From Paludisphaera soli (GTDB taxonomy: Bacteria > Planctomycetota > Planctomycetia > Isosphaerales > Isosphaeraceae): 64,000 nt of DNA. Where the stretch lies: positions 124,001 to 188,000 of the forward strand of contig NZ_JAALJI010000005.1 of assembly GCF_011064595.1 (NCBI RefSeq), given 5' to 3'. This document shows, in pieces, positions 6,732 through 57,064 of the stretch; position 1 is the first letter of the stretch, and every line of letters begins with the position of its first letter. Made by a program: the position numbers and the translations under genes. The notes beneath the pieces were generated by a model. That model had not been told where the DNA came from, did no database searches, and worked only from the letters and a program-made list of their open reading frames with translations.

Positions 6732-6783
6732 TCGGTCCTGGGCGCGCCTTCGCCCCACGCCGCCCGATCGCGGAGATGCGACC

Positions 6784-6930
6784 GTGAGCCCGAACAAGAC
6801 GAACCTCCCCACGAAAGTCTGCCCCACCTGCGGCCGGCCCTTCACCTGGCACCGTCGGTGGCGGCTGACCTGGGACCAGATCGTCTACTGCAGCGAACGA
6901 TGCCGTCGGTCGAAGCGGAAGCACTCCTGA
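6784..6930 (+). CDS. DUF2256 family small zinc-finger protein (48 aa)
   Basis: 48 residues from GTG 6784. The pattern CPTCGRPFTWHRRW (Cys13, Cys16), then WDQIVYCSERCR (Cys36, Cys40), is the DUF2256 signature: a Cys4 knuckle with conserved Trp residues. DUF2256 genes are, to my recollection, often next to photolyase/cryptochrome-type genes; here the neighbour is a spore-photoproduct-lyase-like gene, another DNA photolesion repair family. The start is 52 bases after the 2H phosphodiesterase stop, same strand, so probably the last gene of this cassette. Molecular function unknown. Confidence 0.85.
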   Translation: MSPNKTNLPTKVCPTCGRPFTWHRRWRLTWDQIVYCSERCRRSKRKHS

Positions 6931-6994
6931 GGGGCCTCGCACCTTCCGAGAGAGGGGGACCGCGCCGGAGCCGCGGCGACCGGGACGGTGAATC

Positions 6995-35838: not shown

Positions 35839-37980
35839 TCAGTACTTCGGCACGTACTGGTTCCGCTCCTCGTACTTGGGGCTGCGTTCCCACTGGTTGA
35901 GGACGACGCTGAAGCCCCGGGCGAGGGTGTCCTTGGCGAGGTCGGCCCAGGGGGTGTTCGGGTAGGCGGCGACGACGTCGTCGAGGAGGCGGCGGGCCTC
36001 GACGTACTTCTTGGCGGTCTCGCTCTCGGGGGCGAGCGGCTTGGAGGAATGGTCGACGACGAACGAGATCGCCAGCTCGGGCGTCGGCCGCTTGCTGGGG
36101 GCCTGGGGCGACTGCGCCAGCCGCTGCATGAGGGCCCGGTACTCGTACGCCTTGATCTGGAAGACGACCGTCTGGGCGAGCATCAGGTCGTAATGGGCCC
36201 GCCATCGCCGCTCGGGCTCGCGCTCGCGGTGCTTCTTGAGCGCCTCCAGCTTCTCCTGGACGACGAGCAGGTCGTTCAGCCGCTCGGTGGCCTTGGGGCC
36301 CTCTTCGAGGGCGGCGGAGACCTGCTCTGCGGGGTCGATGGGGAAGTCGCGACGGTAGCGGACGTCGCGGCTCTCGACGACCAGCGAGTAGAGGCTCTGG
36401 CGGAGGTCGGACTCGGCCCGGCGCTGGTTGTAGACCTCGCGCGAGGCGTACTCGGGCATGTATTCCTTGAGGACCTCGATCGTGTAGGCCTTCTCGCGCT
36501 GGCGGATCCGCATGAACTCCTCGGAGGGGAGGAGGAAGTAGATCCCGCCGGACTCCTTGGCGAGCCGGGCCAGCTCCCACGGGCCGAAGCCGGAGGGCTG
36601 CTCGTCCCACCGGCCGTAGAGGCCGTCCCACTGGAAGCACTCGACGTCGGCGGTCTCGGGGCCGCGACGGATAGCCGGGTGGTAGACGTCCTTGGTGACG
36701 GGGTCGACGTAGCGGTGGTGGGCGTAGGGGTAGCCGAAGACCGACTGCCGGCCGATGACGAAGAGGGCCGTGCGGGTCTTCCGCAGGATGGCGAGCGCCT
36801 CCTCGACGAACTCGCCGTCGTCTCCCGACTCGTCGGTGACCAGCACCAGGATCAGCCGGCGGTCCTTGCCGACGAGGCCGGAGTAGCGATCGACGGCCCC
36901 GTGGATCGCGTGCATCGTGGCCTCGTCGCCCGAGGAGTCGACGGGGATGTCCTTCATGGCCCGCCGGATCTCGTCGACGTCGAACGAGGGCTTGCCGAGG
37001 AGGACCTGCGTCTCCTTGCCGAAGGCGAGGATCGCGTGGTTGAGGGCGCCGGCGGCCTTCTTCTCCGGGTCGACGGCCCCGGCCAGCTCGGTGGTGACGC
37101 GGTCGAACTTCTCGCGGATGACGCGCTGGTCGTCGCGCATGCTGGCCGACTTGTCGAACAGCCAGACGACGGTGAGCTTGTGGTCCTGGAGGTGGCGGAG
37201 GATCTCGCGGGTGATCTGGTTCATCGCGTCGCCGATCTCCGAGACGCCGAACGTGGGGTCGCCGCCGACCCGGCCGGAGACCGCCATGTCGACCCCGAGG
37301 GCGGCGGGGACGTTGCTGAACGACGACAGGTTGCGGCCCTTCAGCCCTTCGAGCGCCAGGAAGCGGCCCTCGGCGTCGCCCCGGGCGGCGGGGCCCCGGA
37401 CGGCGGGCGTGGCCGAGGCCGAGCCGGCCCCCGTCAGCACGCTGCCGATGTCCGGCCGCTCGTCGGCCGCGAGGGTCTCGGTCGCCGCGCCGGGGGCGAT
37501 CTCGATCGGGTTCTCCAGGCGGTCGGCCCGCGCGTCGGTGGGGTCGTCGAGGATCGGCGCCTCCTCGATCGCGCGGTCGGCCCCGCCCAGGGCCGTGTCG
37601 AAGTCGATCGGCCGGGACTCGACCGCGCCGTGGAAGGTCGCCGCCGCCAGGGCCGTGAAGATCAGCAGGTGGACGACCAGCGAGACGCTCCAGGCCGGCA
37701 GGACGTGCTTGAGCCGGATCCGGCGCCTCCGCCTGGGCTGGAGCCTCGGCCCTCGGGGGGTCTGCGACGGCGTCGGGGCGGGCGCCGACTCGGTCGTCGG
37801 GCCGGCCGGCGCCGACTCGGTCTTCGGCGCGGGGTCGGGGCCGGGGCTGGGGAACGGCTCCTCGACGACCAAGGTCTTCTGCATGTCCGGGGGCAGGGGC
37901 GGCGGCTCGACCGTCGCCCCCCGGGCGAGGCCCGTCGGGGATACGTCGTCCGACGACGGTGCCGAGAATCGACGTTCCAT
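35839..37980 (-). CDS. Membrane-anchored von Willebrand factor A (VWA) domain protein
   Basis: 713 residues. Cytoplasmic Pro-rich N-terminus, a basic RRRRRIRLKHVL stop-transfer and one membrane helix (about 94-115), then a spacer and a VWA domain with MIDAS motif VVWLFDKSASM (Asp276, Ser278, Ser280) and VLVTDESGDDGE. The C-terminal ~250 residues are helical and charged. VWA domains bind metal and mediate protein contacts. This type occurs in tandem copies in planctomycetes. Another VWA gene of the same layout lies upstream (38196-40130) on the same strand, 215 bases away. Confidence 0.85.
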   Translation of the reverse strand: MERRFSAPSSDDVSPTGLARGATVEPPPLPPDMQKTLVVEEPFPSPGPDPAPKTESAPAGPTTESAPAPTPSQTPRGPRLQPRRRRRIRLKHVLPAWSVSLVVHLLIFTALAAATFHGAVESRPIDFDTALGGADRAIEEAPILDDPTDARADRLENPIEIAPGAATETLAADERPDIGSVLTGAGSASATPAVRGPAARGDAEGRFLALEGLKGRNLSSFSNVPAALGVDMAVSGRVGGDPTFGVSEIGDAMNQITREILRHLQDHKLTVVWLFDKSASMRDDQRVIREKFDRVTTELAGAVDPEKKAAGALNHAILAFGKETQVLLGKPSFDVDEIRRAMKDIPVDSSGDEATMHAIHGAVDRYSGLVGKDRRLILVLVTDESGDDGEFVEEALAILRKTRTALFVIGRQSVFGYPYAHHRYVDPVTKDVYHPAIRRGPETADVECFQWDGLYGRWDEQPSGFGPWELARLAKESGGIYFLLPSEEFMRIRQREKAYTIEVLKEYMPEYASREVYNQRRAESDLRQSLYSLVVESRDVRYRRDFPIDPAEQVSAALEEGPKATERLNDLLVVQEKLEALKKHREREPERRWRAHYDLMLAQTVVFQIKAYEYRALMQRLAQSPQAPSKRPTPELAISFVVDHSSKPLAPESETAKKYVEARRLLDDVVAAYPNTPWADLAKDTLARGFSVVLNQWERSPKYEERNQYVPKY

Positions 37981-38195: not shown

Positions 38196-40130
38196 TCAGA
38201 GCTTGGGGGGTTCGGGGGGCTTGGCCTCGGCCATGGCCGGCTTGCGGCGGGGGGAGGCGGGGTCGTCGCGGCGCGGGGGGGGCGGGGGGACGTAGGCCTC
38301 GACCCACTTGAAGCCCAGGGGGTCCCTCAGCTCGCGGTCGGCCAGCAGGGCCCAGGGGGTCTGGGGGTGCTCCTCGACGACGCGTTTGAGGAGGGCCTCG
38401 GCCTCCTTGGCGGCGGCGGCGGCCTTGTCGCTGTAGCGGATCTCGGCGTCGGGGACGAGCCGCCAGGCGTTGGACTTGGGGTCCTGGAACCTGGGCGGGT
38501 CCTTGACCAGCCGGGCGCAGGCCCAGTTGTACTCGTAGCAGCGGACCTTCATGGCGAGCAGCCGGCCGCGGATCAGGTCGTAGTGGGCCTGCCAGCGGCG
38601 GGATGTCTCGTGCTCGCGGCGCTTGGCGGCGGCGGTGACGGGGGCCAGGGCCTCGTCGACGGTGTACGCGGTCCGCTCGGCGACGACCTGGTTGTTCTGC
38701 AGGACGTCCTTGAACTCGGGGGCGTCCATCGACGGGAACTGGAGCGTGGGCATGCCGGGCAGATTCTGCTGGGTGATGAGCGAGGCGTTGACGACCGCCT
38801 GCCGCAGCGGCGAGCGGGCGATCTCGGCCTCGTACTGGCGGCGGGGGGTCCAGTCCGGGCGGTACTCCTTCATCCGCGAGGCGTCGAAGCCCATCTTGGT
38901 CCCGTCGAGCCGGGCGACGAAGTAGACCCCCCCGGTGGCGGCCGCGAGCCGGCTGAGGGCGTACGGGCCGAAGCCGGACTCCAGCTCGTCGTACTGGGGG
39001 CCGCCGTACCAGAAAGGGAGGCGGATCTGCTCGATCATCGCGCTCTCGGGCCCGGCGTCGACCTTCAGCCCCCGGTGCAGGTACTTGGTGCGGGGGTCGT
39101 AGTAGTCCATCGCGCGGTCGGCGCGGCCGAAGAGGGCCTGGGAGCCCAGGACGTAGACCGGGGCCTCGCGCTTGCGGGCGGCCTCGATGGTGGATTCCAG
39201 GCGGTCCTGGTCGTCGCCCACCTCGTCGGTCACGACGATCACCATGAGCCGGTAGTCGTCGCCGTCGGGCCCCTTGAACTTGCCGTACTTGTCGACGATC
39301 CCGGCGACGGTGGCGAAGGTGGCCTCGTAGCCCGAGTCGTCGGCGGGGATCGACTCGATGGCCTCGCGGATCGCGGCCACGTCCTCGGTGGGCCTGGGGG
39401 TCATGGCCTTGCGCGCCCGGCCGAAGGCCACGACCGTCGACAGGAGCCCGCCGTCGGCCGAGAGCTTGTCGCGGTCGAGCCGGCCGATGTGGCCGTAGAT
39501 CGTCTCGATGTGCTTGCCCAGCCGCTTGCGCTCGACCTCCAGGCTGCGGGAGGCGTCGAACGCCCAGGCGACCAGGGTGCGGCCCCGCTCCAGGCGGCGG
39601 ACGACCTCCATCGCCACCCGGTCCACGGCGCCCTCGACCCCCTCGACGTGCTCGGCGCCGTCCCCCTCGATCGCGAACGACTCGCCCAGGGTCGACGCCG
39701 ACGGCGCGATCGCCTCGACGGCGCGCTGGACGTCGCGACGGCCGAAGTCCATCGCCAGGGCCTCGTCGGCCGGGTTCGGCGCCGGGCCGGCGGCGGCCGG
39801 GGCCGCCACGTCGGCCGCCGCCAGGATCGGCGCGAACGACCCGGAGGCCTCCATCACCGGCTCGTCGTCCGCCTGGTCCAGGTCCTGGAGCGTGGAATCG
39901 GTCGTCAGCGGCTCCAGGTCGCGCGGGGGGGCGTCGACCAGTTCCGAGTCGAAGCGCGACGGGGAGGACTCCGGGGCGTGATGGCCGGCGAACGCCAGGC
40001 CGACCAGCACCACCGCGTGGATGGTCAGGCTGACCAGGCCGGCGGTCATCGTGGTCGCCGGGCCCGCCGAGGTCGGCGCGCCGGCCCGACGCGCCCATCC
40101 CGCCAGGATCTCCCCGAGCCGGTCGAACAT
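38196..40130 (-). CDS. Membrane-anchored VWA domain protein, paralogue of the 35839 gene
   Basis: 644 residues from ATG 40130. One membrane helix near the N-terminus (about 29-49, SLTIHAVVLVGLAFAG), then a VWA domain with MIDAS motif VAWAFDASRSLEVE (Asp192, Ser194, Ser196) and VIVVTDEVGDDQD. The layout matches the neighbouring paralogue: the same VTDE-x-GDD motif, the same spacing, and C-terminal phrases such as YDLIRGRL against YDLMLAQT. A longer frame to 40277 adds 49 residues that lack features. Likely outcome of an old tandem duplication; both may form one envelope complex. Confidence 0.83.
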   Translation of the reverse strand: MFDRLGEILAGWARRAGAPTSAGPATTMTAGLVSLTIHAVVLVGLAFAGHHAPESSPSRFDSELVDAPPRDLEPLTTDSTLQDLDQADDEPVMEASGSFAPILAAADVAAPAAAGPAPNPADEALAMDFGRRDVQRAVEAIAPSASTLGESFAIEGDGAEHVEGVEGAVDRVAMEVVRRLERGRTLVAWAFDASRSLEVERKRLGKHIETIYGHIGRLDRDKLSADGGLLSTVVAFGRARKAMTPRPTEDVAAIREAIESIPADDSGYEATFATVAGIVDKYGKFKGPDGDDYRLMVIVVTDEVGDDQDRLESTIEAARKREAPVYVLGSQALFGRADRAMDYYDPRTKYLHRGLKVDAGPESAMIEQIRLPFWYGGPQYDELESGFGPYALSRLAAATGGVYFVARLDGTKMGFDASRMKEYRPDWTPRRQYEAEIARSPLRQAVVNASLITQQNLPGMPTLQFPSMDAPEFKDVLQNNQVVAERTAYTVDEALAPVTAAAKRREHETSRRWQAHYDLIRGRLLAMKVRCYEYNWACARLVKDPPRFQDPKSNAWRLVPDAEIRYSDKAAAAAKEAEALLKRVVEEHPQTPWALLADRELRDPLGFKWVEAYVPPPPPRRDDPASPRRKPAMAEAKPPEPPKL

Positions 40131-40677
40131 GCCCGCAAGCTCCGACTGCCGCGCCGGAGCGAACCGGGCGGGGGACCGATCGATCGACAGGATCCGACGA
40201 GGTTCGACGCCGCGAAGGGGCGCGACGAGCCGGCTCGTCGCCGATCTCGTCCGGGGCGCACTCGCCCACGACGACATTATTCGGCGCGACGGCCGTTTCG
40301 TGACGGACGAACTCGGATTTCGCCCGATCCGGCGTCCTCTCCCCGACCAATCCTAAGCCCCGGCCCGGCCCGAGGCAATGCGACGGCCCCGGGCGTTTCG
40401 CGGTCCCCACGCGCGGGGAGCCGGCGCGACGGCCGATGCCGGAGCGGCGCCCCCGCCGGAAATTCGAGGAGGCCGCCTTGGATGGCCGGGCCCCCGGGGG
40501 TCGACGTGCGGCCGACGCTCTCGGGCCTGCCGGACGCCGACCTCCACGGCTTCGACCAGTTCTGGTTCCTCCAGGCGATCTTCGCTGGCCCGCCGAAAGG
40601 CCGGCGCGCGACGACCGCCCCGGGGGCGTCGGGGCGGCCGTCGAGGGTCGCGTTCGTCGGGTCGCCCGAGGGCGGCC
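40131..40677. other. Intergenic region between divergent transcription units
   Basis: About 550 bases upstream of the minus-strand VWA gene. The part near 40270-40310 is less GC-rich, consistent with a promoter. Its right half (40482-40680) overlaps a weakly supported small plus-strand frame listed separately. No repeats or RNA genes recognised. Confidence 0.4.
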
Positions 40678-40757
40678 TCAGGCCTGGGCGGGGGCGGTCG
40701 GGTCGAGGGGGGCCGGCGGGGGCGGGGTGTAGTCGCCGCCGCGGGGGATGGCGTTGA
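40482..40757 (+). CDS. Possible small protein of unknown function (weak)
   Basis: 91 residues from ATG 40482, with GAGGAGG at 40465-40471. The first 40 residues have a natural-looking composition (VRPTLSGLPDADLHGFDQF), after which the frame becomes Arg/Gly/Ala-rich and runs 80 bases into the 3' end of the opposing LEPR-XLL gene, which is unusual. It may be a gene remnant or a real small protein with a wrong 3' end. Reported only because the start of the frame looks coding. Confidence 0.25.
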   Translation: MAGPPGVDVRPTLSGLPDADLHGFDQFWFLQAIFAGPPKGRRATTAPGASGRPSRVAFVGSPEGGLRPGRGRSGRGGPAGAGCSRRRGGWR

Positions 40758-42369
40758 ACTGCTCGGCGCCGATGGTGGTGATCATGGCGTCGGTCAGGTT
40801 GATCTGGGCCGCGACCGGGCCGGAGATCCAGCGGCGATGGCCGTCGGCGTAGTTGGCCAGCTCGCCGGTCTGGTTGTTCTTGAGGAACATCCCCTCGATG
40901 AAGTAGTCGGCGCCCCGCGACACGGCGTTGTACTGGCCGCCGGAGACCGAGATCAGGTCGGCGGCGGTCAGGCCGAGCTTCGCGGCGACGGGCGACGAGA
41001 CGACGCTCCGCTTGCCGGCGTCGTAGCGGGCGATCTCGCCGTTCTCCTGGTTCTGCAGGTAGACGCCGTTCGGGAAGTAGTCCTTGCCCTGGGGCACGGC
41101 GTTGAACTGGGTCGGGCTGATCACGACGATCTGGCTCGCCTGCAGGTTCAGCCGGGCGGCGACCGGCACCGAGATCCAGTGCCGCTCGCCGGCCTGGTAG
41201 ATGTCGATCTCGCCGGTCTGCTGGTTCTGGATCAGCAGTCCTTCGGGGAAGTAGTCGTTCCCCTTGTTCACGCCGGAATACTGGGCGGCGGAGATCGTGG
41301 CGACGTCCGCCACGGCGATGCCCAGGAAGGTCGCGACCGGCGTCGAGACGACGTGGAAGGTCCCGCCGGAGTAGCGGGCGATCTCGCCCGACTGCTCGTT
41401 GCGGACGAACAGGCCCTCGGGGAAGTAGTCCGCCCCCTTCGGCACCGCCTTGAAGTCCTCGGCCGTCACGGACTTGGTCTGCTCGGCGGTCAGCCCCATC
41501 TTGGCCGCGACCGGCGGCGAGATCAGGCCCCGCTTGCCCTGGCTGTAATACCCCAGCTCGCCCGTCTGCTCGTTCCGCAAGATCGTCCCGTCCGGGAACG
41601 TCGGCGCGGGGTTCGCCGGGGTCGTCGGCGTGGGGGCGGGGGTGGTCGGAGTGGTGGGAGCCGGGGTCGTCGGCGCGGGCGTCGTCGGCGTGGGGGTCGT
41701 CGGAGCCGGCGTGGGGGTGGTCGGAGCGGGGGTCGTGGGCTTGGGGGCCGGGGTGGTCGGCTTGGGAGCCGGGGCCTGGCCGGGCTTGGTGACGTCGGTC
41801 CAGCCGCCGAAGCCGCCGCCGGGCCGGCTCGGGCCGGGCTTCGCCGGGGTGGTCGGCGCGGGGGTCGTCGGCGCCGGCGTGGTCGGCGCGGGCGTCGTCG
41901 GCGTGGGGGTCGTGGGTGCCGGCGTGGGGGCCGTCTGGGCGTTCGGGGTCGGTGTCGGGGCGACCTGGGGGTTGGGGATGGTCGGGTAGGTCACGACCGG
42001 GTTGGCGTTCGCGTTGACGACGGGGTTGGCGGTCGGCCCGCCGACGTTGATCGTGGGCGAGACGTTGATCGTGGGCGAGACGTTGATCCGGAAGCCGGGC
42101 TGCCTCATCCGCATGGCGTTCATGCCGGCGAAGCGGTTGGGCATCTGGGCGCGGGCGGCGGCCGTCGCCCGGGGCTGGACCTGGGCCCGCAGCCGCGCCG
42201 CGTTCCCCTGCGGCTGCTGGCGGATCAGGGCCGCGGCCTGGCGGGGGCGGAACTGGCCGGCGGCCGACAGCAGCAGGCGCCCTTCCAGCCCTTCGAGGGT
42301 GGTCCGGAATTCAACCTTGCGACGCTTGGCGTTACGGGCCTGGCCGCCCGCAAGTTCCTCGTGCGACAT
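40678..42369 (-). CDS. LEPR-XLL-type surface protein with five 58-residue repeats
   Basis: 563 residues. The N-terminus has a basic stretch then LEGLEGRLLLSA (25-36), a match to the planctomycete LEPR-XLL export signal. Next come an Ala/Gln/Arg region, an Asn/Pro region (INVSPTINVSPTINVGG), and a Pro-Thr-rich linker (about 145-257, APTTPAPTTP-type). Residues 258-547 are five exact-length 58-residue tandem repeats, each of the pattern F-P-x-G-(ILV)-(FY)-(ILV)-x-N-x-Q-x-GE(IL)-x-Y, then PVA, then (Q/D)F/Y-N-x-V-x-x-G-x-DY. No enzymatic motif. Probably a secreted or surface adhesion or ligand-binding protein. Confidence 0.82.
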   Translation of the reverse strand: MSHEELAGGQARNAKRRKVEFRTTLEGLEGRLLLSAAGQFRPRQAAALIRQQPQGNAARLRAQVQPRATAAARAQMPNRFAGMNAMRMRQPGFRINVSPTINVSPTINVGGPTANPVVNANANPVVTYPTIPNPQVAPTPTPNAQTAPTPAPTTPTPTTPAPTTPAPTTPAPTTPAKPGPSRPGGGFGGWTDVTKPGQAPAPKPTTPAPKPTTPAPTTPTPAPTTPTPTTPAPTTPAPTTPTTPAPTPTTPANPAPTFPDGTILRNEQTGELGYYSQGKRGLISPPVAAKMGLTAEQTKSVTAEDFKAVPKGADYFPEGLFVRNEQSGEIARYSGGTFHVVSTPVATFLGIAVADVATISAAQYSGVNKGNDYFPEGLLIQNQQTGEIDIYQAGERHWISVPVAARLNLQASQIVVISPTQFNAVPQGKDYFPNGVYLQNQENGEIARYDAGKRSVVSSPVAAKLGLTAADLISVSGGQYNAVSRGADYFIEGMFLKNNQTGELANYADGHRRWISGPVAAQINLTDAMITTIGAEQFNAIPRGGDYTPPPPAPLDPTAPAQA

Positions 42370-42568: not shown

Positions 42569-45500
42569 TCAGCGGCCGCGCGAGGCCCGGGCCTTGGCGA
42601 CGATCACCGCCTCGTCCAGCGGGTTGGCGGGGTGTCGGGAGAGGGAGTAGGGGGCCTGGATCCGCAGCGGGGCGGGCAGGCCGACGTCGGCGTTGTGGAC
42701 GTAGAACCGGCCCGCGCCGAGCTTGGCCACGTCGTCGCCCTGGCCCCCCTTCTGGCGGATCAGGTCGCGGACGGCCTCGATGGCGACCGGCGAGTTCATC
42801 TTGCCGTAGACGTGGGTCGAGCAGTTGCCGACCAGCTTGGGGTCGACGTCCTTGGGATTCTGGGTGGCGAAGACCAGCCCGAGGTGGTACTTCCGCGCCT
42901 GGGCTCCCAGCCGCAGCAAGCTCTCGCGGCAGGTCGACGCCTTGCCCGACGGGACGAAGTCCTTGGCCTCGTCGATCACGAGGAGCCCCCGCAAGGGCCG
43001 GCCGCCGGGGTCGGGGTTCTTCTTGATCCAGGCGAACAGGGTCATCGCCAGCTGGTTGAGGAAGCGCCGCTGAGACTCCAGCCCCGCCAGCCCCGCCAGG
43101 CTGACGACCGACACCCGCGCGGGGGCGTCCGGGGCCGTCGGGCCGAACAGCAAGGCGGGGTCGAAGGGGGTCCCGCCGGTCCGCAGGAGCGGATCGGTCG
43201 CCATCTCGGCGAGCAGGGCGTCCGCCATCTGCACGGCCAGCTTGCGCTCGGTGCTGATCCCCGTGCCGGCCTCGGGCGGGAGGTCTTGCAGGACCTCGAT
43301 CAGCTCGCCGATCCGGCCGCCCCCCCCGCGCCGGGCCAGGTAGCGGAGGACCTCGGCGAGCACGCCGAGCTTGAACGCGGAAGCCTGGCTCCGGCCCTTC
43401 GCCACGAGGGGGCCGAGCGACTCGACGACGCACTGGACGGCGTCGTCCAGCTCCTCGCGGTCGTCCGCCAGGGCGGCGAGGTCGGGCAGGGGCTCGAACC
43501 AGAGCGGGTTGCCGTCGGCCCGGTTGGGGGTCCAGACGACCACCCGGCCCGCGACGTGGTAGGCGTCCGCCTTGCGGCCGTCCAGGTCCGTCCAGCCGTC
43601 CGGCGGCGGGTCCCAGCGCTCGTCGAGCGCCGCCAGGTCGTTGGCGCAGTCGACGACGATCGACGGCACCCCCGCCAGCGCCGCCTCCTCCACCAGCCGC
43701 TTGAGGAAGACCGTCTTCCCCGACCCCGCGCCGGCGATCACCAACGTATGCTTCTCCAGCGACTTGACCGGCAGCCCGAACGCCTCGCCGAGCGACCCGC
43801 CGGCCCAACGACGCCCCAGTGGGATCGAGCCGGCGGGGGCCGCGGCGGCCGGCTCCTGCACGACGTGACCGTTGGTCGGCGCGGTCGCCGTCGGCTCGGC
43901 GGGCGCGGCCGCCTCGGCGTGGTCGCCGCCGAAATGCGGGCCCACGATCCCCCGCAGCAGCGCCAGCCTCGACGCCGGCCGGGCGGAGCGGAGCCAGGGG
44001 AGGAAGCCGGCCTCGTTGCGGCGTTTCAGTTCGTGCAGGGCGTGCAGGGTCCGCAGGTCGTCCTCGTCCGGCGCGACGAAGACGCCGCCGAGGCTCTCGA
44101 ACCGGGCCGTCAGCTCGATCGTCTTCGGTCCGCCGGGGACGGGGATCGACCGCACGACGGCCAGGCGACGGAACGGCAGCCGGCGGTCGATGCCCGAGAT
44201 CTCCAGCGCCGAGGTCAACTGATTCTGATACGCTTTTGCGTTGGCGTGCTGGATCGCCCGGACGCAGTAGTGCTCCTCGCGCTCGTTCTCCCTGTGGAAG
44301 ATCCGCCGCAGCCGGGCGTGCAGCGGGGCCGTCTTCGCCCCGCCGGTGAACTGGACCTCCACCGTCGCGTGGACGTCGAGCGACTCGGGACCCTCGTGCA
44401 CCAGGCAGGCCAGCCCCGACCGGATCAACGGCGCCAGCCGCTCGTCGTCGTGCTTCTCCTCCAGGATCCAGGCGGGGTCGGCAGCGCGGCGGAGGGTTTC
44501 GAACTCGCGATCCAGCGGGTCGTCATCGACCTCTCCGGTCGTGCTTGGACCTTGAACCGTCGATCTGGCCGGGGCCCCGAAATCTCCGACCTCCCGGACC
44601 TCGCCTTCGGACAGGCACTTCTGAATATGTTCGTGGCACCGCTTGAGGACCTCGCGCGGGCTGTCGGCGGCGAGGGGCTCGAAGGCCTCGGGCTTGAACG
44701 GGAAGGTGGGGTAGGGGGGGGTGAAGCCGGCCTCGCGGAAGGCCGCGTCGAGGCGTCCGCGCGCGACGGCCCGCGCGGCGTCGGCGGTCTTCAGGGGGGA
44801 GAGCCGGAACTCCCCCTCGAAGCGGTCGAGCGAGGCGCGAAGGACCGTCCCGCGCAGGAAGTCCCAGGTGGTCTCGATGCACGAGACGATCGTCAGGGTG
44901 GAGCGGGTCACGTCGCGGAGCGCGCCCAGGCCGCCGCCGATCTCGCTGATGATGGCCTCGGCCGTGGCCTGCTCCTCGGTCAGGGCGCTCCCCTGCCGGC
45001 GGTAGTGGAGCTGGGTGACGATCGGGTCGAGCTGGTCGAAGGCGAGCACGGCGGGCCCGCTCAGGCTCAGGAACCACGAGAGCGCCTCGATGATGATCCG
45101 CGGCGGCTCGGCCTCGGCGGTGAAGCCCAGCTCGCGCTTGTCCTCCGGCTCCAGCGCCTGGCCCTGGAGCCACGTCTGGCCCAGGTTCGAGATCGTGAAG
45201 TCATCCGAGTTCATGCAGATGAGCGCGCGGATGACGTTCTGATACTTCATCGTCTGCTCGGGCCAGACCCGGTTCATGGCGCCCAGGACCTTGTTCACGT
45301 CGCCGCGGAGGTCGGTGCTCTTGCGGTCGGCCAGGGTCCGGAGGATCTGCGCCACGGGCTTGTTCGGGCCGAGCTTCTCGATGATGTTGCCGAGCACCCA
45401 GCGGTGCTGCGGGACGCCCCCCTCGATCTGCTTCTGGAGCGAGTGGACGTAGCCCTGCAGGACGCTCGCCCAGAAGTTCCGGACGTCGGTCAGGTCGACC

Positions 45501-45766
45501 ATGATGAACGGGTGCTTGCGCCTGGCCGCCTCGCGCCGGAAGGCGCCGAGCAGGTGCGTCTTGCCCGACCCGCCGGCCCCGACGACGGCCCAGCCCAGCG
45601 GCGAGCCCTGGCCCCGGGCCCGCTCCATCTCGTCGAGCTTGCGCGCGAAGTCGGCCCGGAGGTTGGCGTGCAGCTCGGGCACGTCGGCCGCGGGGCGGCC
45701 CCAGACGTCGTTCAGCCGCACCGCCCAGTCGAAGTCGGCCGATCGCAGGACTTCCAGCGCGTTCAT
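42569..45766 (-). CDS. Dual-NTPase protein: N-terminal AAA-type ATPase plus C-terminal HerA/FtsK-like DNA pump
   Basis: 1065 residues from ATG 45766, which overlaps the upstream gene's TGA by four bases (ATGA). First NTPase: Walker A GAGGSGKTH (63-71), Walker B AVLAFDQLD (239-247). Middle region (about 400-600) has no recognised motif. Second NTPase: Walker A GAGSGKT (679-685), Walker B GLLVIDEAKDF (927-937), sensor-like FATQNPKDVDPKLVGNCSTHV. The latter resembles HerA, VirD4 and TraG-type hexameric DNA-pumping ATPases. It lies downstream of a probable winged-helix protein and a DUF559-type nuclease. Together they suggest DNA end-processing or anti-phage defence. Function inferred. Confidence 0.85.
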   Translation of the reverse strand: MNALEVLRSADFDWAVRLNDVWGRPAADVPELHANLRADFARKLDEMERARGQGSPLGWAVVGAGGSGKTHLLGAFRREAARRKHPFIMVDLTDVRNFWASVLQGYVHSLQKQIEGGVPQHRWVLGNIIEKLGPNKPVAQILRTLADRKSTDLRGDVNKVLGAMNRVWPEQTMKYQNVIRALICMNSDDFTISNLGQTWLQGQALEPEDKRELGFTAEAEPPRIIIEALSWFLSLSGPAVLAFDQLDPIVTQLHYRRQGSALTEEQATAEAIISEIGGGLGALRDVTRSTLTIVSCIETTWDFLRGTVLRASLDRFEGEFRLSPLKTADAARAVARGRLDAAFREAGFTPPYPTFPFKPEAFEPLAADSPREVLKRCHEHIQKCLSEGEVREVGDFGAPARSTVQGPSTTGEVDDDPLDREFETLRRAADPAWILEEKHDDERLAPLIRSGLACLVHEGPESLDVHATVEVQFTGGAKTAPLHARLRRIFHRENEREEHYCVRAIQHANAKAYQNQLTSALEISGIDRRLPFRRLAVVRSIPVPGGPKTIELTARFESLGGVFVAPDEDDLRTLHALHELKRRNEAGFLPWLRSARPASRLALLRGIVGPHFGGDHAEAAAPAEPTATAPTNGHVVQEPAAAAPAGSIPLGRRWAGGSLGEAFGLPVKSLEKHTLVIAGAGSGKTVFLKRLVEEAALAGVPSIVVDCANDLAALDERWDPPPDGWTDLDGRKADAYHVAGRVVVWTPNRADGNPLWFEPLPDLAALADDREELDDAVQCVVESLGPLVAKGRSQASAFKLGVLAEVLRYLARRGGGGRIGELIEVLQDLPPEAGTGISTERKLAVQMADALLAEMATDPLLRTGGTPFDPALLFGPTAPDAPARVSVVSLAGLAGLESQRRFLNQLAMTLFAWIKKNPDPGGRPLRGLLVIDEAKDFVPSGKASTCRESLLRLGAQARKYHLGLVFATQNPKDVDPKLVGNCSTHVYGKMNSPVAIEAVRDLIRQKGGQGDDVAKLGAGRFYVHNADVGLPAPLRIQAPYSLSRHPANPLDEAVIVAKARASRGR

Positions 45767-46422
45767 GAGCCCCGGCCCCCGAGATACAGGATGTGCCGCT
45801 CCTCGCCCGACGGCGTGAGGAAGACGGCCTCGCGGTCCTCCTCGCGGATCTCGCGCGGGTCGTCGAGCCGGTAGAGGGTCGCCTCGCCCTTCGTCTGCAG
45901 GTCCAGCAGGGCCCGGTCCAGGTCGTCGCGGGGGACGGCCGGCAGCCGTCGCCGCAGCTCGGCCAGGTGGACCCGCACGTTGGGCCGGCCGCCGGTGATG
46001 GCGTAGTAGGTCGAACTCGCCAGCACGGCCGCGTCGCCGTCCTCGGCCCCGGCTCCGAAGGCCGGCGCGGGGGCCTCGGCCAGCAGCTCGCCGAGCGACA
46101 GGTCGCGGCGCTCCAGGAACCCCTTGAGCCGGAGCAGGACCAGGCGGAGGACCTCGGTCCCGGCCGTGGACTTCGTGTTCAGGTCGGCGTCCAGGTGGGC
46201 GCCCAGCCACGCCCAGCCGCCGTCGGTGAGGGCGACGTGCAGCGCCGCGGCGCGGCCGTCCGGGGGCTTGCGTTTGGCCGTCTCGATCAACCTCGCGGCC
46301 TCCAGACGCCTGCGGGCGGGGGCCTCCAGGGCCGGCTTGATCTCCTTGTTCCAGCCCTCGCCCCCGGTGGCGGCCAGGCGCCAGAGGAACAGGGCCTCGA
46401 TCGGCTTCAGCTCGGGATTCAT
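45763..46422 (-). CDS. Probable winged-helix adaptor of the nuclease/ATPase operon (219 aa)
   Basis: 219 residues. The ATG (46420-46422) overlaps the preceding nuclease stop in a TGATG junction, and the stop overlaps the ATPase start in ATGA: strict translational coupling on both sides. The N-terminal half has the spacing of a winged helix: IEALFLWRLAATGGEGWNKE, ALEAPARRRLEAARLIETAK, LHVALTDGGWAWL. A second helix-turn-helix-like unit occurs around 150-200 (VRVHLAELRRRLPAV, LDRALLDLQTKGEATLYRLD). It could recognise DNA or bridge nuclease and pump. No named family recognised. Confidence 0.75.
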   Translation of the reverse strand: MNPELKPIEALFLWRLAATGGEGWNKEIKPALEAPARRRLEAARLIETAKRKPPDGRAAALHVALTDGGWAWLGAHLDADLNTKSTAGTEVLRLVLLRLKGFLERRDLSLGELLAEAPAPAFGAGAEDGDAAVLASSTYYAITGGRPNVRVHLAELRRRLPAVPRDDLDRALLDLQTKGEATLYRLDDPREIREEDREAVFLTPSGEERHILYLGGRGS

Positions 46423-47426
46423 CAACGTACCCTTTTCTCGGCATGCGTCGCCCGTCGTCGGGTCGCGACCACGTCGCGGATCTTCTCGACGGCCAGGGCC
46501 GGGTCCTGGGCCGCCTCGTCCTCGGGCAGGCGGAGCACCAGGTACCCGCTGACCGTCAGCTCGTAGTCGCGCCTGCGGTCGTTGGAGAAGGCCCGCGGGT
46601 CGCTGTGGAAGTGATAGCCGTCGACCTCGACGACCACCTTCCCCTCCTCCCAGACCAGGTCCACCAGCGGCGTCGTCCCGCGCGCGGTCGCCACGCGGAC
46701 GTTGAACCGGAAGAGGCCGGCCAGTTCGGCGTCGCGCCCCAGCCGCTCGGCCAGCCGCATCTCGCCCCCGCTCGACGGGTTCGGCCGGCCGATCAGGGGC
46801 GAGGCCCGCAGGATCGCCCGAGGCCCCGCGCACGAATCGACAGACTCGCATGCGTCGCCGCGAAGGTGGGTCGCCTCGAAGGCCACGGCGTCCAGCTCGG
46901 CCGAGCCGGCGAGGGCCTCGGGGACGACCACCAGCACCCGCGCCGGGGCCTCGCGGGCGAGCCACTCGGCGGCCTTCGCCAGGGCCAGGAGCGCGCCGGG
47001 GGGCGGGGCCTCGTCGTCGGTCGCCAGGGCGAAGAGCAGGGGGCCGGGGTCGACCGCCAGGGCCAGCTGCCGCGCCGAGGCCGTCGCGGTGAACCCCACG
47101 GGCAGGGGCCGGCGGCCGAGCCCGCAGAGGCTCGCCGCCGCCTTCCGCCAGGGGGCCGAGACCCCCCGGTCGGCCGGGTGCTCGCACCACCCCGGCCAGG
47201 TCGCCAGCGCCAGGTCGGCCAGCCTCTCCAGCACGTCGTCGATCAGCGAGCCCAGCCGGGGCAGCCGGCCGTATCGGATGGCCACCAGCCGGGAGTCGCC
47301 CACCGCGTCCCCCTCCAGCGCCCCCAGCACGGCCCCGACCCCGCCCCTCGCGACGAACGCCGCCCGCGCCCGGCCGATCGCCGGCAGGGGGGGCAGCCCG
47401 AGTTCCACTCCGGATCGCGACGCCAT
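46422..47426 (-). CDS. Protein with C-terminal DUF559/Vsr-like nuclease domain
   Basis: 334 residues from ATG 47426. The N-terminal ~220 residues have no recognised fold. The C-terminal ~110 form a PD-(D/E)xK-type nuclease core: TTPLVDLVWEEGKVVVEVDG (Asp256, Glu267, Asp269), YHFHSD, RRRDYELTVSGYLVLRLP. The same order of motifs occurs in the DUF559 protein at 13765-14130 (IVDFYDAARRLAIELDGDSH, QNLRVLRIS). It is the first gene of a three-gene coupled operon with a probable winged-helix protein and a HerA-like ATPase. Nuclease activity is predicted, not shown. Confidence 0.82.
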   Translation of the reverse strand: MASRSGVELGLPPLPAIGRARAAFVARGGVGAVLGALEGDAVGDSRLVAIRYGRLPRLGSLIDDVLERLADLALATWPGWCEHPADRGVSAPWRKAAASLCGLGRRPLPVGFTATASARQLALAVDPGPLLFALATDDEAPPPGALLALAKAAEWLAREAPARVLVVVPEALAGSAELDAVAFEATHLRGDACESVDSCAGPRAILRASPLIGRPNPSSGGEMRLAERLGRDAELAGLFRFNVRVATARGTTPLVDLVWEEGKVVVEVDGYHFHSDPRAFSNDRRRDYELTVSGYLVLRLPEDEAAQDPALAVEKIRDVVATRRRATHAEKRVR

Positions 47427-47974
47427 CGCTCGCTCGAATCGACCTCGACCGGGAAAACCTCCGACGCCTGGATCCTAGCTCACCTTCGACCCCCCCCGCC
47501 ATCTCCGGGCCATCAGGCATCCTGCCGACCCTCGCCGAGATTGGCTTCGTTCACCGCCCCCGGAATCGAAGCCGATTCGCCGCAAACCCTTTTTTGACAT
47601 CGTCTTAAACCCGACCAACGGTTCCGAGAATTGGCTTCGTTCGGCGCGCTTCGTCAGGTTGCGCCCCGATCCGGAGCCCCGGACGGCTCGCGGCGGGATC
47701 GGCTTCGTTCGCACCGCTCGAAAAACGAACCCATCGGCCGCAAGCCGTTTCCAGTTAACCACTTGAACTCGCGGAAACGGCCCCCGAATTGGCTTCGTTC
47801 GGCGCGCTTTCCTCGTCGTTTGCGCCGACGATCCCGCCGGTCGATCCTCAACACGTCGAATTGCCAAGGAGCCGGGCCGACGCCGAATGGAACGCATCGC
47901 CCCATCCTGGACAGTGCACATGATTGCGGAATGGGGAGAAGATCGGGGACCGTCGCCCTCCGCGTCCGGCCCGA
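47427..47974. repeat. A-B-A-B direct repeat array upstream of the nuclease operon
   Basis: About 550 bases with no convincing gene. The 13-base core ATTGGCTTCGTTC occurs at 47540-47552, 47630-47642 and 47788-47800, and once with one change (ATCGGCTTCGTTC, 47698-47710). Spacings are 90, 68, 90 bases. Copies 1 and 3 share further sequence (CCG-CAA-CC, GCCGCAA), and copies 2 and 4 share another downstream stretch (GGCGCGCTT, then GTTGCGCC or GTTTGCGCC), so the array is two copies of a ~158-base A+B unit. It lies between the operon start (47426) and the M50 protease. Role unknown. Confidence 0.7.
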
Positions 47975-48574
47975 TCACCGGAGGGCCGCGACCCCCAGCT
48001 CCACCGCCGCGACGGCCGTCAGGAGCGCGGACGCCCAGCCGACGGCGCGCGGATCCACACGCCCCCGCGCCTGGCCCAGCCCGAACCTCGGGCCGAGGCC
48101 GTGCCAGATCCGGAGGCCGGCCGCGACGGCGACGAGGCCGAACGCGACCAGCGGCCAGCTCGGAAAGCCGAGGCGGAGCAGGTCGCCCGCGTCCCCCTCG
48201 CCGCCGAACGCGCCGACGCCCAGGTAGGCGCCGTTGGCGACCAGGCAGAAGCCGGCGAAGAAACGGGGCAGATAAGCCAGGACGAGGCGAAGGCCCCGGG
48301 CGACGGCCCACCCCGCGACGGGGATCGCCGAGCCCAGCAGGGGTCCCGCCCAGGCGACCAGGGCAGGGCGTCGGACGCCCGAGACGTCCGTGCGCGAGAG
48401 GGCCAGCGGATGCAGGAGCACGCGGTCGACCGACCCGCCGTCGGCCCAGGCCGCCAGGACGTGCCCGAACTCGTGGACGACCTGCATCCCCAGCCAGGAG
48501 GCGCCGAGCGTCGACCCGATCAGCGCGAGCTGGGCCCCACGGACCTGCACGTCGATGCCATCATCGTGCTTCAT
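47975..48574 (-). CDS. M50-type (site-2-protease-like) membrane metalloprotease
   Basis: 199 residues, about five membrane segments. The zinc motif is MQVVHEFGHVLAAW (His34, Glu35, His38) in the first or second segment, as in M50 peptidases that cut inside membranes. The distal NxxPxxxxDG-type zinc ligand motif is not obvious: the nearest is AGPLLGSAIPVAGW and GEGDAGDLLRLG, so activity may be reduced. Similar short M50 proteins are common in planctomycetes. Same strand as the upstream K/A-rich gene, 209 bases away across a repeat. Confidence 0.75.
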   Translation of the reverse strand: MKHDDGIDVQVRGAQLALIGSTLGASWLGMQVVHEFGHVLAAWADGGSVDRVLLHPLALSRTDVSGVRRPALVAWAGPLLGSAIPVAGWAVARGLRLVLAYLPRFFAGFCLVANGAYLGVGAFGGEGDAGDLLRLGFPSWPLVAFGLVAVAAGLRIWHGLGPRFGLGQARGRVDPRAVGWASALLTAVAAVELGVAALR

Positions 48575-54127: not shown

Positions 54128-57064
54128 ATGATGCGATCGCGAATCGTGGCGGTGGCGTGCTGGGCGGCGGTCCTGGGCGTCGGAGGGGCGCGGGGCGAGG
54201 AGGCGACGGCCCCGGCGGCGCCAGGGGGGGAGCTTTCGGCGCGCTGGATCTGGCTGGATCAGGAGGAGGAGCAGCCGTACAACCAGACGATCCTCGCCCG
54301 CAAGGCGTTCACGCTCGATCGGCCGTCGCGGGGGCGGGTCCGGATCACGGCGGACAGCTACTACCGGCTCTCGATCAACGGCCGGTGGGTGGGCGACGGC
54401 CCCGGCCGGGCCTGGGCAGAGCATTACCAGTACGACGACGTGGACGTCACCCCGTACCTCCGCGAGGGGGAGAACGAGGTGCAGGTCGTCGCCCGGTACT
54501 ACGGCGTGGGGGACTTCCACCGGGTCCCCAAGCGTCCCGGGCTGCTGGTGCAGGTCGACGTGCTGGGGACCGATGAGCGGACGACGACCGTGGTCACCGA
54601 CGATTCGTGGGAGGTCGCGCCGGCCGAGGCCTGGTCGCGCAACACGCCCAAGGTCAGCATCCAGATGGAGCCCGCCGAGGTCTACGACGCGACGCTCGAA
54701 GCCGCGCCGCAGTACGCCCCCGCGAAGGTCGTCGCCGAGGCGACGCGCGGCCCCTGGAAGGACCTCCGCCCGCGCGACGTGGCGCTGATGACGCTCCAGC
54801 CGTTCCCGCTCAAGACCTACCTGGGTGCGAAGGTGGTGCGGGCCGACGGCTGGAACTTCGCCTTCCCCGCCTCCCGCCTGGTCCACCCCGGCCTCATCGA
54901 GGCCAACCGCAACACGAGCGCCGGTTGCGGGCTCGCCACCCTGATCGTCAACGACGAGCCGTGCGAGGTCCGGGTCGCGAACGAGAACGTCGACTTCGCG
55001 ATCGACGGCGCGCGGGCCGAGGACGGCGCGTTCAAGCTGGAGCCCGGCCGGCACCTGCTGCTGGGGTTCGTCCGCAACATGTTCGGCCACGATAAGGAAA
55101 AGGCCGTCCGGTTCGTGGAGCCGAAGGGCTTCCGGCTGGTCAACCCGATCGACGACGAGCAGACCAACCCGTTCTGCTTCCTCGCCTTCCCCGAGTTCGC
55201 CGTGGCGGGCGACGACCTGGCCTGGCCCGACCTGGGGCTCCGCCCGGAGTTCGCCAAGGCCGAGCAGGGCTACAACGCCGCCAAGGCCGAGCTGCTGGCG
55301 GCGGTGAAATCGGCCGACGACCTGAAGGCGAAGACGGCGGATCGGATCAAGCAGTTGCCCTCGCGCGAGATGTTCGTGCGCGACGCCTTCTGGCGGTTCG
55401 TGGACCGCAAGGTGGTCGGCCCGGCCGACGCGCTGGTGTCGCAGCCGTACGCCCTGACGCACGAGTCGCCGTCCATGACGACGGTCCGCCCCAGCCCCGA
55501 CGGCGACGTGGAGCTGCTGTACGACCTGGGCGAGCAGAACGTCGGCTACTACGACTTCGAACTGGTCGCCGACGCGGGGGTGACGATCGACGTCTTCGGC
55601 GTGGAGTACATCGCCCCCGACGGCCGCATCCAGTTCCCGCTGGGCAACCGCAACGGGATGCGCTACGTCACCAAGAAGGGGGTGAACCGGTTCACGTCGA
55701 TCAAGCGACGGTCGGGCCGCTACCTGTTCGTGACGCTGCGGAACCAGCAGACGCCGGTCGCGATCCGCAACCTGCGGCTGATCGAGTCCACCTACCCGGT
55801 GGAGCAGGCGGGGAGCTTCGCCTGCAGCGACCCGAGGCTGGACCGGATCTGGGAGATCTCCACGCGGACGCTCAAGCTCTGCATGGAGGACACGTACACC
55901 GACTGCCCGCTGTACGAGCAGACCCACTGGGTCGGCGACGCGCGGAACGAGTCGCTGCTGGCGTACCAGGTCTTCGGCGCGACCGACCTGGCCCGGCGCT
56001 GCATCCGGATCACGGCGGAGTCGCTGGAGCACTACCCGATCGCCGGCTGCCAGACGCCTTCGAGCTGGGACGTGCTGATCCCGGCCTGGAGCTTCCTCTG
56101 GGGGATCTCGATCTGGGACTACTACTGGTACGCCGGCGACCTGGAGACGCTGAGGGAGTTCCACGCGTCGGCGATCAAGAACCTGCAAGGCGCCGAGAAG
56201 CACCTCAACCCCCAGGGGCTGTTCACCGGGGCCTACTGGAACTTCTTCGACTGGTCGGGCCTGGACCAGAACCGCAAGACGGTGCTGCACAACAGCCTGT
56301 TCTTCATCGGCGCGATCGACGCGGCCTTGAAGTCGGCCGAGGCGCTCGGCGACCGGTCGCGCGACGCCTGGCTGAAGTCCACCCGCGCCCGGCTGGTGAA
56401 GGGGGTGAACCTGCTCTGGGACCGCGAGAAGCAGGCGTACCCGGACTCCGTCCACGACGACGGCAAGGCCAGCGAGTCGACCAGCCAGCACACCAGCTTC
56501 CTGGCGATCCTGTACGACGCGGTCGACCCCCGGAACAGGGCCGCCGCGGCGAAGAACGTGCTGACGCCCCCCGAGGGGATGGTCCGCGTCGGCTCGCCGT
56601 TCGCCGCGCTCTACCACTACGGCGCGATGGAGGCCCTCGGCCGCGAGGACGCCATCATCGCCGAGATCTACAAAAACTACCTGCCGATGCTCGACGCCGG
56701 GGCGACGACGGTCTGGGAGAGCTTCGCCACCGGGACGACCGGCGGCGGCGGGTTCCCGACGCGGAGCCACTGCCACGCCTGGTCGTCGGCGCCGAACCTC
56801 TACCTGCCCCGGATCGTCCTGGGCGTGAAGCCCACCGCGCCGGCGGCGGCGACGGTGGAGATCAACCCCCGGCCCTCGGGCCTCTCCTGGGCGAAGGGGA
56901 CGGTCGTCACCGCCAAGGGGCCGATCGCCGTCTCGTGGAAGCTCGACGCGCAGGGGGCCCTGGCCGTCGAGGCGACCGCCCCCGAGGGGGTGACGCTCGC
57001 CGTCGGCCGCAACCCGGAGACCGCCGGCAAGCCTTTGACGTTCAACGGCCAGGCCGCGCCCTGA
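54128..57064 (+). CDS. Secreted glycoside hydrolase family 78-like (alpha-L-rhamnosidase-like) protein
   Basis: 978 residues. Signal peptide (about 1-24). An N-terminal beta-sandwich like those of rhamnosidases (ARWIWLDQEEEQPYNQTILA, YYRLSINGRWVGDGPG) is followed by the helical (alpha/alpha)6 domain with DCPLYEQTHWVGDARNESLL (592-611); the family motif is D-C-P-x-(R/Y)-E-Q. Further landmarks: WDVLIPAWSFLWG, WNFFDWSG and WESFATG. It should release terminal rhamnose from plant or algal glycans, but GH78 and related families are diverse. The start may be 54116 or 54131; 54128 is a compromise. Divergent from the sigma factor. Confidence 0.87.
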   Translation: MMRSRIVAVACWAAVLGVGGARGEEATAPAAPGGELSARWIWLDQEEEQPYNQTILARKAFTLDRPSRGRVRITADSYYRLSINGRWVGDGPGRAWAEHYQYDDVDVTPYLREGENEVQVVARYYGVGDFHRVPKRPGLLVQVDVLGTDERTTTVVTDDSWEVAPAEAWSRNTPKVSIQMEPAEVYDATLEAAPQYAPAKVVAEATRGPWKDLRPRDVALMTLQPFPLKTYLGAKVVRADGWNFAFPASRLVHPGLIEANRNTSAGCGLATLIVNDEPCEVRVANENVDFAIDGARAEDGAFKLEPGRHLLLGFVRNMFGHDKEKAVRFVEPKGFRLVNPIDDEQTNPFCFLAFPEFAVAGDDLAWPDLGLRPEFAKAEQGYNAAKAELLAAVKSADDLKAKTADRIKQLPSREMFVRDAFWRFVDRKVVGPADALVSQPYALTHESPSMTTVRPSPDGDVELLYDLGEQNVGYYDFELVADAGVTIDVFGVEYIAPDGRIQFPLGNRNGMRYVTKKGVNRFTSIKRRSGRYLFVTLRNQQTPVAIRNLRLIESTYPVEQAGSFACSDPRLDRIWEISTRTLKLCMEDTYTDCPLYEQTHWVGDARNESLLAYQVFGATDLARRCIRITAESLEHYPIAGCQTPSSWDVLIPAWSFLWGISIWDYYWYAGDLETLREFHASAIKNLQGAEKHLNPQGLFTGAYWNFFDWSGLDQNRKTVLHNSLFFIGAIDAALKSAEALGDRSRDAWLKSTRARLVKGVNLLWDREKQAYPDSVHDDGKASESTSQHTSFLAILYDAVDPRNRAAAAKNVLTPPEGMVRVGSPFAALYHYGAMEALGREDAIIAEIYKNYLPMLDAGATTVWESFATGTTGGGGFPTRSHCHAWSSAPNLYLPRIVLGVKPTAPAAATVEINPRPSGLSWAKGTVVTAKGPIAVSWKLDAQGALAVEATAPEGVTLAVGRNPETAGKPLTFNGQAAP

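What the first reader, a model, noticed from the sequence alone, without database searches (positions are those of the whole stretch)
42569..47426. Unnamed three-gene operon: DUF559-type nuclease, winged-helix-like protein, dual-NTPase HerA-like pump
Seen: three minus-strand genes joined by TGATG and ATGA overlaps. Motifs: PD-(D/E)xK-like core in the first protein (Asp256, Glu267, Asp269), two HTH-like units in the second, and two full Walker A/B sets in the third, the second set HerA/VirD4-like. Known: HerA-type ATPases team with nucleases in NurA-HerA DNA end resection and in anti-phage systems such as SIR2-HerA and DUF4297-HerA; DUF559 is a Vsr-like nuclease fold. Inference: these three make one DNA-processing or defence complex. 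I do not recognise the set (DUF559 nuclease plus AAA-HerA fusion plus small adaptor) as a named system. A repeat array lies directly upstream of the operon.
Basis: partly seen in the sequence, partly recalled or inferred. Interest (0 to 1): 0.85.

Follow-up and report, generated by a model that had tools for sequence, protein, structure and literature searches.

The report
Three-gene ORC–HerA nuclease defence cassette
Three overlapping genes encode a predicted DNA pump joined to a DNA-licensing-type ATPase, a DNA-binding adaptor and a DNA-cutting enzyme; they travel together across several bacterial phyla and best fit a class of anti-invader systems that has been predicted by others but, as far as I could find, not tested at the bench.

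Summary
Three minus-strand genes (A 46422-47426, B 45763-46422, C 42569-45766) are joined by TGATG and ATGA overlaps. A is a DUF559 nuclease whose Asp256, Glu267 and Asp269 are invariant in 20 homologues. B is predicted to carry a MarR-like winged helix plus a second winged-helix-like unit. C (1065 aa) is predicted to be an ORC/CDC6-type AAA+ ATPase, a middle domain with restriction-enzyme-like topology, and a HerA/FtsK ATPase closest in fold to the DndH C-domain.

The trio is conserved in order in about 75 loci from Actinomycetota, Desulfobacterota, a Methylobacterium plasmid and the window's relatives. The three genes co-evolve and sit at insertion-type sites, such as between rpsQ and rplN in 29 Mycobacteriales loci.

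The set is absent from PADLOC. However, Rakesh, Aravind and Krishnan (NAR 2024, PMC10853773) predicted a class of 'HerA/FtsK capture systems' with ORC/CDC6, inactive REase, active REase, HerA/FtsK and a fast-evolving multi-wHTH protein. This trio meets most of that description. It is a new member of a known, predicted kind.

The upstream 'repeat array' is a genome-wide dispersed repeat. Anti-invader function is likely but unproven; near-universal presence in Rhodococcoides and sparse known defence neighbours argue for caution.

The parts
46422..47426 (-). Gene A: 334 aa DUF559-family predicted nuclease
   Evidence: Pfam PF04480 E 5.8e-8 at residues 253-319; D256, E267, D269, D283, D287, R299 invariant in 20 homologues
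46452..46814 (-). PD-(D/E)xK-like nuclease domain of A (about residues 205-325)
   Evidence: alignment A3, Pfam span
45763..46422 (-). Gene B: 219 aa two-winged-helix adaptor
   Evidence: AlphaFold2 model pLDDT 85.7; MarR-like winged helix at residues 1-84, Z 10.6; C-terminal half winged-helix-like by secondary structure
42569..45766 (-). Gene C: 1065 aa ORC/CDC6 AAA+ - middle domain - HerA/FtsK fusion
   Evidence: AlphaFold2 model pLDDT 82.2; fold matches; Pfam AAA_22, DUF87
44573..45766 (-). ORC/CDC6-type AAA+ module of C (residues 1-398): Walker A GAGGSGKTH, Walker B D244-Q245-L-D247, conserved Arg315
   Evidence: Z 16.6, rmsd 3.5, 263 residues to A. pernix ORC2 1w5t, model span 5-500; motif conservation
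43931..44518 (-). Middle domain of C (residues 417-612), alpha-beta-beta-beta-alpha-beta topology, REase-like without a recognisable catalytic triad
   Evidence: secondary structure of the model; profile comparison with the DUF559 domain gave no match, so identification is by topology only
42572..43849 (-). HerA/FtsK ATPase of C (residues 640-1065)
   Evidence: Z 27.2 to DndH C-domain 7es4, Z 26.9 to Sulfolobus HerA 4d2i; Walker A 679-685, Walker B D932-E933 invariant in 38 homologues
47540..47808 (.). Four copies of a dispersed 21-nt repeat upstream of A; not considered part of the system

Best explanation
The trio is a compact anti-invader (phage, plasmid or other mobile DNA) system of the ORC/CDC6-coupled 'HerA/FtsK capture' class. 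Proposed mechanism: C assembles as a ring on DNA. Its ORC/CDC6 module acts as an ATP-dependent loading and sensing clamp; the conserved Walker B Gln245 suggests slow hydrolysis, so that it works as a switch. The winged-helix protein B helps place the complex on particular DNA or states of DNA. The HerA/FtsK ring then pumps the invading DNA, and the pumping delivers it to nuclease A, which cuts. Shown here: the gene set, its conservation and co-evolution, intact catalytic motifs, predicted folds, and insertion-site behaviour. Inferred: that the proteins form a complex, that the target is invading DNA, and the order of steps.
For: The same three genes, in the same order and often with 1-4 nt overlaps, occur across phyla. 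Pairwise identities of A, B and C co-vary (r 0.80-0.90, 0 of 500 permutations as high). Folds: ORC2 and HerA/DndH-C for C, MarR-like winged helix for B, DUF559 core with invariant acidic residues for A. This domain set matches the published prediction of ORC/CDC6 HerA/FtsK capture systems. Immune-like genome behaviour: the cassette lies between rplN and rpsQ on the opposite strand in 29 loci, and that site is closed up (about 0.3 kb) in R. gordoniae, which carries the trio elsewhere. At that site, loci whose rpsC is 99% identical can carry trios only 52% (C), 46% (B) and 35% (A) identical. Presence is 5 of 18 in Rhodococcus and 4 of 6 in the window's genus, with a trio-less version of the site in G004. 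One clade replaced A by an unrelated P-loop and TPR protein. Experimentally studied two-gene HerA-nuclease systems are anti-phage (PMC11291478).
Against: No experiment exists for this trio in anything I could read. In one genus (Rhodococcoides) 36 of 37 species have C, which is unusual for a defence system. Of 148 neighbouring proteins scanned, few match PADLOC models, mostly promiscuous ones such as kinases and methylases, so there is no clear defence island. Six loci lack any detectable DUF559 gene, so the nuclease is not obligatory. No phage record holds C.
Confidence: 0.6

Rival explanations
1. DNA repair or end resection: the trio works like archaeal HerA-NurA, with the HerA motor feeding broken chromosome ends to nuclease A, as a housekeeping function of the lineages that carry it.
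For: HerA-NurA structures are among the top fold matches (9x1m, 7f6d); near-universal presence in Rhodococcoides, 36 of 37.
Against: Absent from most Rhodococcus (13 of 18) and from 2 of 6 species of the window's genus; deep allele replacement at one syntenic site; no HAS-barrel match in Pfam, the domain that docks the nuclease in DUF4297-HerA; nuclease gene replaced in one clade.
Confidence: 0.2
2. A selfish or mobile element module: the cassette serves transfer, segregation or integration of a mobile element rather than host defence.
For: HerA/FtsK, VirB4 and TrwB folds are shared with conjugation motors; the cassette sits at insertion-type sites; copies lie on a Methylobacterium plasmid and a Tsukamurella record typed as a plasmid.
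Against: The Tsukamurella record carries the main ribosomal-protein operon around the trio, so it is chromosomal in character; long-term retention in Rhodococcoides; phage records lack C.
Confidence: 0.12
3. A modular reading (compatible with the best explanation, not exclusive of it): B and C are the core sensor/motor and A is only one of several exchangeable effectors, so the nuclease reading explains only part of the family.
For: A monophyletic group of six loci (support 0.992) has a 587-743 aa P-loop and TPR protein in place of A; one Rhodococcus locus has a tandem B-C duplication with a single A.
Against: A is present and co-evolving in nearly all other loci.
Confidence: 0.35

Closest known systems
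ORC/CDC6-coupled 'HerA/FtsK capture systems' (Rakesh, Aravind and Krishnan, NAR 2024, PMC10853773)
   Same: ORC/CDC6 AAA+, a middle domain consistent with inactive REase, an active REase, HerA/FtsK without an FtsK-alpha domain but with a helical insert, and a separate fast-evolving protein with winged helices
   Different: The paper speaks of two active REase families, one shared with AbiJ; I could not check in its supplements whether DUF559 is one of them. Here ORC, middle domain and HerA are in one polypeptide.
DndFGH restriction module (DndH C-domain)
   Same: The HerA/FtsK part of C is closest in fold to the DndH C-domain (Z 27.2; tied with HerA 4d2i at 26.9); DndG is also a multi-winged-helix protein
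   Different: No DndF or DndG match in PADLOC for A or B; DndH has SF2, methylase and REase domains that C lacks; no Dnd modification genes were seen
DUF4297-HerA and SIR2-HerA anti-phage systems
   Same: HerA-type ATPase in an operon with an effector enzyme
   Different: Two genes, effector docks on a HAS barrel in DUF4297-HerA; C has no HAS-barrel match and carries an ORC module instead; third gene B
HerA-NurA end-resection complex
   Same: HerA motor plus a DNA nuclease
   Different: NurA is an unrelated nuclease family; no ORC module, no winged-helix partner
MADS mad8 (PADLOC PDLC04140)
   Same: HerA-core match, E 4.3e-27 over C 670-1036
   Different: The model is promiscuous (88 matches in this genome), covers only the HerA core, and no other mad component matches A or B
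BREX BrxC/BrxD and SspC
   Same: ORC/CDC6-type AAA+ in a defence operon (literature, PMC12839542, PMC10853773)
   Different: No PglZ, BrxX or Ssp modification partners recognised at this locus

Membership tests
ORC/CDC6-coupled HerA/FtsK capture system | ORC/CDC6-family AAA+ ATPase | tested here: met
   Z 16.6, rmsd 3.5, 263 residues to A. pernix ORC2 1w5t; Walker A and Arg315 conserved. Walker B is DQxD rather than DExD.
ORC/CDC6-coupled HerA/FtsK capture system | Inactive REase inserted after the AAA+ core | tested here: inconclusive
   Residues 417-584 of the model run alpha-beta-beta-beta-alpha-beta without a conserved D...(D/E)xK set; no domain-level fold search was possible and profile comparison to DUF559 gave nothing.
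ORC/CDC6-coupled HerA/FtsK capture system | C-terminal wHTH of the ORC/CDC6 protein after the iREase | tested here: inconclusive
   Only helices 568-583, 588-595 and 602-608 precede the linker; no wing is seen in the model.
ORC/CDC6-coupled HerA/FtsK capture system | HerA/FtsK ATPase | tested here: met
   Z 27.2 DndH-C, 26.9 HerA; Walker motifs invariant in 38 homologues
ORC/CDC6-coupled HerA/FtsK capture system | Active REase in the operon | tested here: met
   A: DUF559 with invariant D256, E267, D269. Whether DUF559 is one of the two published families could not be checked.
[quoted passage not shown]
   B: first wHTH Z 10.6, second by secondary structure only; B is less conserved than C in median identity among close pairs
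ORC/CDC6-coupled HerA/FtsK capture system | Activity against invading DNA | not testable with these tools
   Predicted by comparative genomics in the source paper; no experiment found
Canonical HerA of HerA-nuclease systems | N-terminal HAS barrel before the RecA fold | tested here: not met
   No HAS-barrel family among Pfam matches at E up to 1; matched HerA chains align only from about residue 102-151 on, and C 614-642 is a low-confidence linker
DndFGH | DndF and DndG partners | tested here: not met
   No PADLOC DndF or DndG match for A or B in the window or relatives
MADS | mad1-mad7 components alongside mad8 | tested here: not met
   A and B match none; scattered mad2, mad3 and mad6 matches among 148 neighbours of relatives are few

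The most novel reading that the evidence does not exclude
The trio is a distinct subtype in which the ORC/CDC6 ATPase has lost its catalytic Walker B glutamate (Gln245, conserved across the family) and works as a nucleotide-locked clamp that licenses a HerA pump fused to it, with DUF559 as a new effector family and an exchangeable effector slot; in Rhodococcoides it has become a near-core immune gene set, often at a fixed ribosomal-operon site.
Probability: 0.25. Interest if true: 0.65.

Novelty: new member of a known kind. Interest (0 to 1): 0.45.

Why it matters
The ORC/CDC6-HerA capture class is so far a computational prediction. This trio is small, self-contained and present in culturable Rhodococcus and Rhodococcoides, so the prediction can be tested directly. 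If it works, it would show how a replication-licensing ATPase fold is reused to load a DNA pump for immunity, and would add DUF559 to the known effectors of HerA-type systems. The rplN-rpsQ gap of Mycobacteriales would also be marked as a place to look for further such genes.

Tried and rejected
(1) Coincidental neighbours: rejected, because order and co-variation hold over about 70 loci. (2) MADS: the strong mad8 match was followed up; the model matches 88 places in this genome, so it is not diagnostic. (3) Repeat array as part of the operon (CRISPR-like or regulatory): rejected, 104 dispersed genomic copies of the core. (4) Profile-profile comparison of the C middle domain with the DUF559 domain, and of the two halves of B with each other: no match. 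(5) Defence-island test on 148 neighbours: no clear enrichment; no matched background set was scanned. (6) Phage records: no C homologue; viral contigs gave only four distant relatives of the HerA part, not the trio. (7) Literature for DUF559 with HerA or with defence system: nothing relevant. (8) G108, the one Rhodococcoides genome without C, starts its contig at the site, so the absence may be an assembly gap. (9) Two searches with the whole downstream neighbour protein failed on the server; a sub-range worked. (10) VIA-align lists for C are filled by the HerA part and for B by the first winged helix, so the absence of other families there says nothing.

Full report
Observation. Gene calling and translation confirm three minus-strand genes at the stated coordinates with TGATG and ATGA junctions. 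A (334 aa) matches Pfam DUF559 (E 5.8e-8) at residues 253-319; B has no significant family match; C (1065 aa) matches AAA_22/AAA_16 and DUF87/HerA models. PADLOC has only a weak homing-endonuclease match for A (E 0.0013) and none for B; C matches mad8 and several HerA models.

Conservation. A search of 99 relatives found C homologues at about 42-83% identity in about nine other genomes and a more distant family (about 23-33%) in others. A scan of 84,980 species genomes returned 74 loci, mostly Rhodococcus/Rhodococcoides, Williamsia, Micromonospora, Actinoplanes, Herbidospora, Acrocarpospora and Catellatospora, and two Desulfobacterium MAGs. The same A-B-C order is present in almost all of them. 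After gene calling, B homologues sit at -1 in 82 loci and A homologues at -2 in 75 of 94. A complete trio is also on a Methylobacterium aquaticum plasmid and in Nonomuraea. In Tsukamurella the genes are annotated only as 'DUF559 domain-containing protein', 'hypothetical protein' and 'DUF87 domain-containing protein'. Identity matrices of A, B and C over 67 sequences correlate at 0.80-0.90, with none of 500 permutations as high.

Folds. AlphaFold2 with an alignment of 38 homologues modelled C at mean pLDDT 82. Its residues 640-1061 match the DndH C-domain (7es4, Z 27.2, rmsd 3.7, 330 residues) and HerA (4d2i, Z 26.9), followed by HerA proteins of SIR2-HerA, DUF4297-HerA and HerA-NurA. Its N-terminal part matches Aeropyrum ORC2 (1w5t, Z 16.6, rmsd 3.5, 263 residues, model span 5-500). 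The region 417-584 between them has helix-strand-strand-strand-helix-strand order, the topology of a restriction-enzyme core, without a conserved catalytic set; this was not tested by its own fold search. B was modelled at pLDDT 86; its first 84 residues are a MarR-like winged helix (RosR 6qfd, Z 10.6, rmsd 2.1, 77 residues), and the last 90 residues look winged-helix-like by secondary structure only.

Motif detail. In the ORC module Walker A is intact, but the Walker B glutamate is glutamine (D244-Q245-x-[DE]): invariant in all 38 close homologues, and Q245 in all 29 of the wider set that includes the distant family. Arg315, in a DRF motif at the place of an ORC arginine finger (placement inferred), is also invariant. 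The HerA module has a normal D932-E933 Walker B. By established knowledge of AAA+ proteins, a Walker B E-to-Q change slows hydrolysis, so I infer that the ORC module is a nucleotide-dependent clamp or switch and the HerA ring the motor. C has no HAS-barrel match, the domain on which DUF4297 docks in DUF4297-HerA (PMC11291478), so A would have to dock elsewhere.

Genome behaviour. In 29 Mycobacteriales loci the trio lies beside rpsQ, and where both flanks are in view between rplN and rpsQ, on the strand opposite to the ribosomal genes, with rplN-rpsQ distances of 5.3 to 10.6 kb and variable extra genes. In R. gordoniae, which carries its trio elsewhere, rpsQ and rplN are about 0.3 kb apart. Where neighbours are nearly identical (rpsC 99%), C can be as low as 52%, B 46% and A 35% identical, which suggests replacement of the whole cassette at one site. 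C is in 36 of 37 Rhodococcoides genomes, some with two or more copies, but in 5 of 18 Rhodococcus. In the window's genus full-length C is in four of six genomes. The gene just downstream (40678-42369) is in all six, and in G004 it lies directly beside, and divergent from, the homologue of window gene 54146-57064, with neither the trio nor the other intervening window genes between them.

Modularity. In a well-supported clade of six actinobacterial loci (support 0.992) the place of A is taken by a 587-743 aa protein with a P-loop (GGSSTGKT or similar) and, in the one that matched, TPR repeats. The genome of the window also has a B-like plus ORC-only pair without HerA (L037). The effector and the motor therefore look exchangeable around a B plus ORC core.

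Known class. Rakesh, Aravind and Krishnan (NAR 2024, PMC10853773; [quoted passage not shown] some HerA/FtsK versions lack FtsK-alpha and carry a four-helix insert. C has helices 770-788, 794-812, 819-827 and 840-857 inside its HerA fold in the model. The trio meets the ORC, HerA, active-REase and multi-wHTH features; the inactive REase and the ORC C-terminal wHTH are inconclusive. The authors propose that HerA/FtsK pumps invader DNA to the restriction part while the ORC module localises it; my mechanism follows theirs and adds the Walker B observation and DUF559 as effector. Their work is computational, and I found no experimental test.

Caution. Of 148 neighbouring proteins, few match PADLOC models, and those mostly belong to broad kinase and methylase families, so the classic defence-island argument is weak. 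Near-universality in one genus would also fit a housekeeping role. I therefore put anti-invader function at about 0.6 and repair at about 0.2. Verdict: a real, conserved, well-formed cassette, and a new member of a predicted but untested class.

Noticed in passing
window 47540-47808; G000 genome-wide: A 21-nt repeat with core GAACGAAGCCAAT is dispersed through this genome: 104 copies of the 13-mer, often spaced about 90 nt apart, against 1 for the reversed control. Its nature is unknown.
   Followed up: partly
window 40678-42369 (-): A 563 aa protein with a Pro/Thr-rich repeat region and several copies of a DYFPxG-LxNxxTGE-type repeat lies directly downstream of the trio; its C-terminal 291 aa are conserved in all six genomes of the genus, with or without the trio.
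   Followed up: partly
L037 (G000:C154:14000-33000), about 6686-9558: The same genome holds a paralogous pair: a 356 aa winged-helix-like protein and a 606 aa ORC-type protein without the HerA half.
   Followed up: partly
L030, L032, L034, L035, L036, L038: A second, distant family in the window's wider relatives: DUF559 nuclease, 320-370 aa B-like protein and ORC-HerA protein in the same order, about 23% identical to the trio's C.
   Followed up: partly
rplN-rpsQ gap in Rhodococcus, Rhodococcoides, Williamsia and Tsukamurella loci (e.g. L060, L115): The S10/spc ribosomal operon is split by variable cargo at this site: the trio, VapBC, a DEAD-box helicase and others; it looks like a general insertion hotspot.
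   Followed up: partly
L045 and G135:C9: One Rhodococcus locus has a tandem B-C duplication behind a single A, with the two C copies only about 54% identical.
   Followed up: no
window 35839-37980 and 38196-40277 (-): Two adjacent large proteins; the first has a VWA-domain match and both match the same stretch of L021, so they look like diverged paralogues.
   Followed up: no
window 47975-48574 (-): A small Peptidase_M50B-like membrane protein just upstream of the trio.
   Followed up: no
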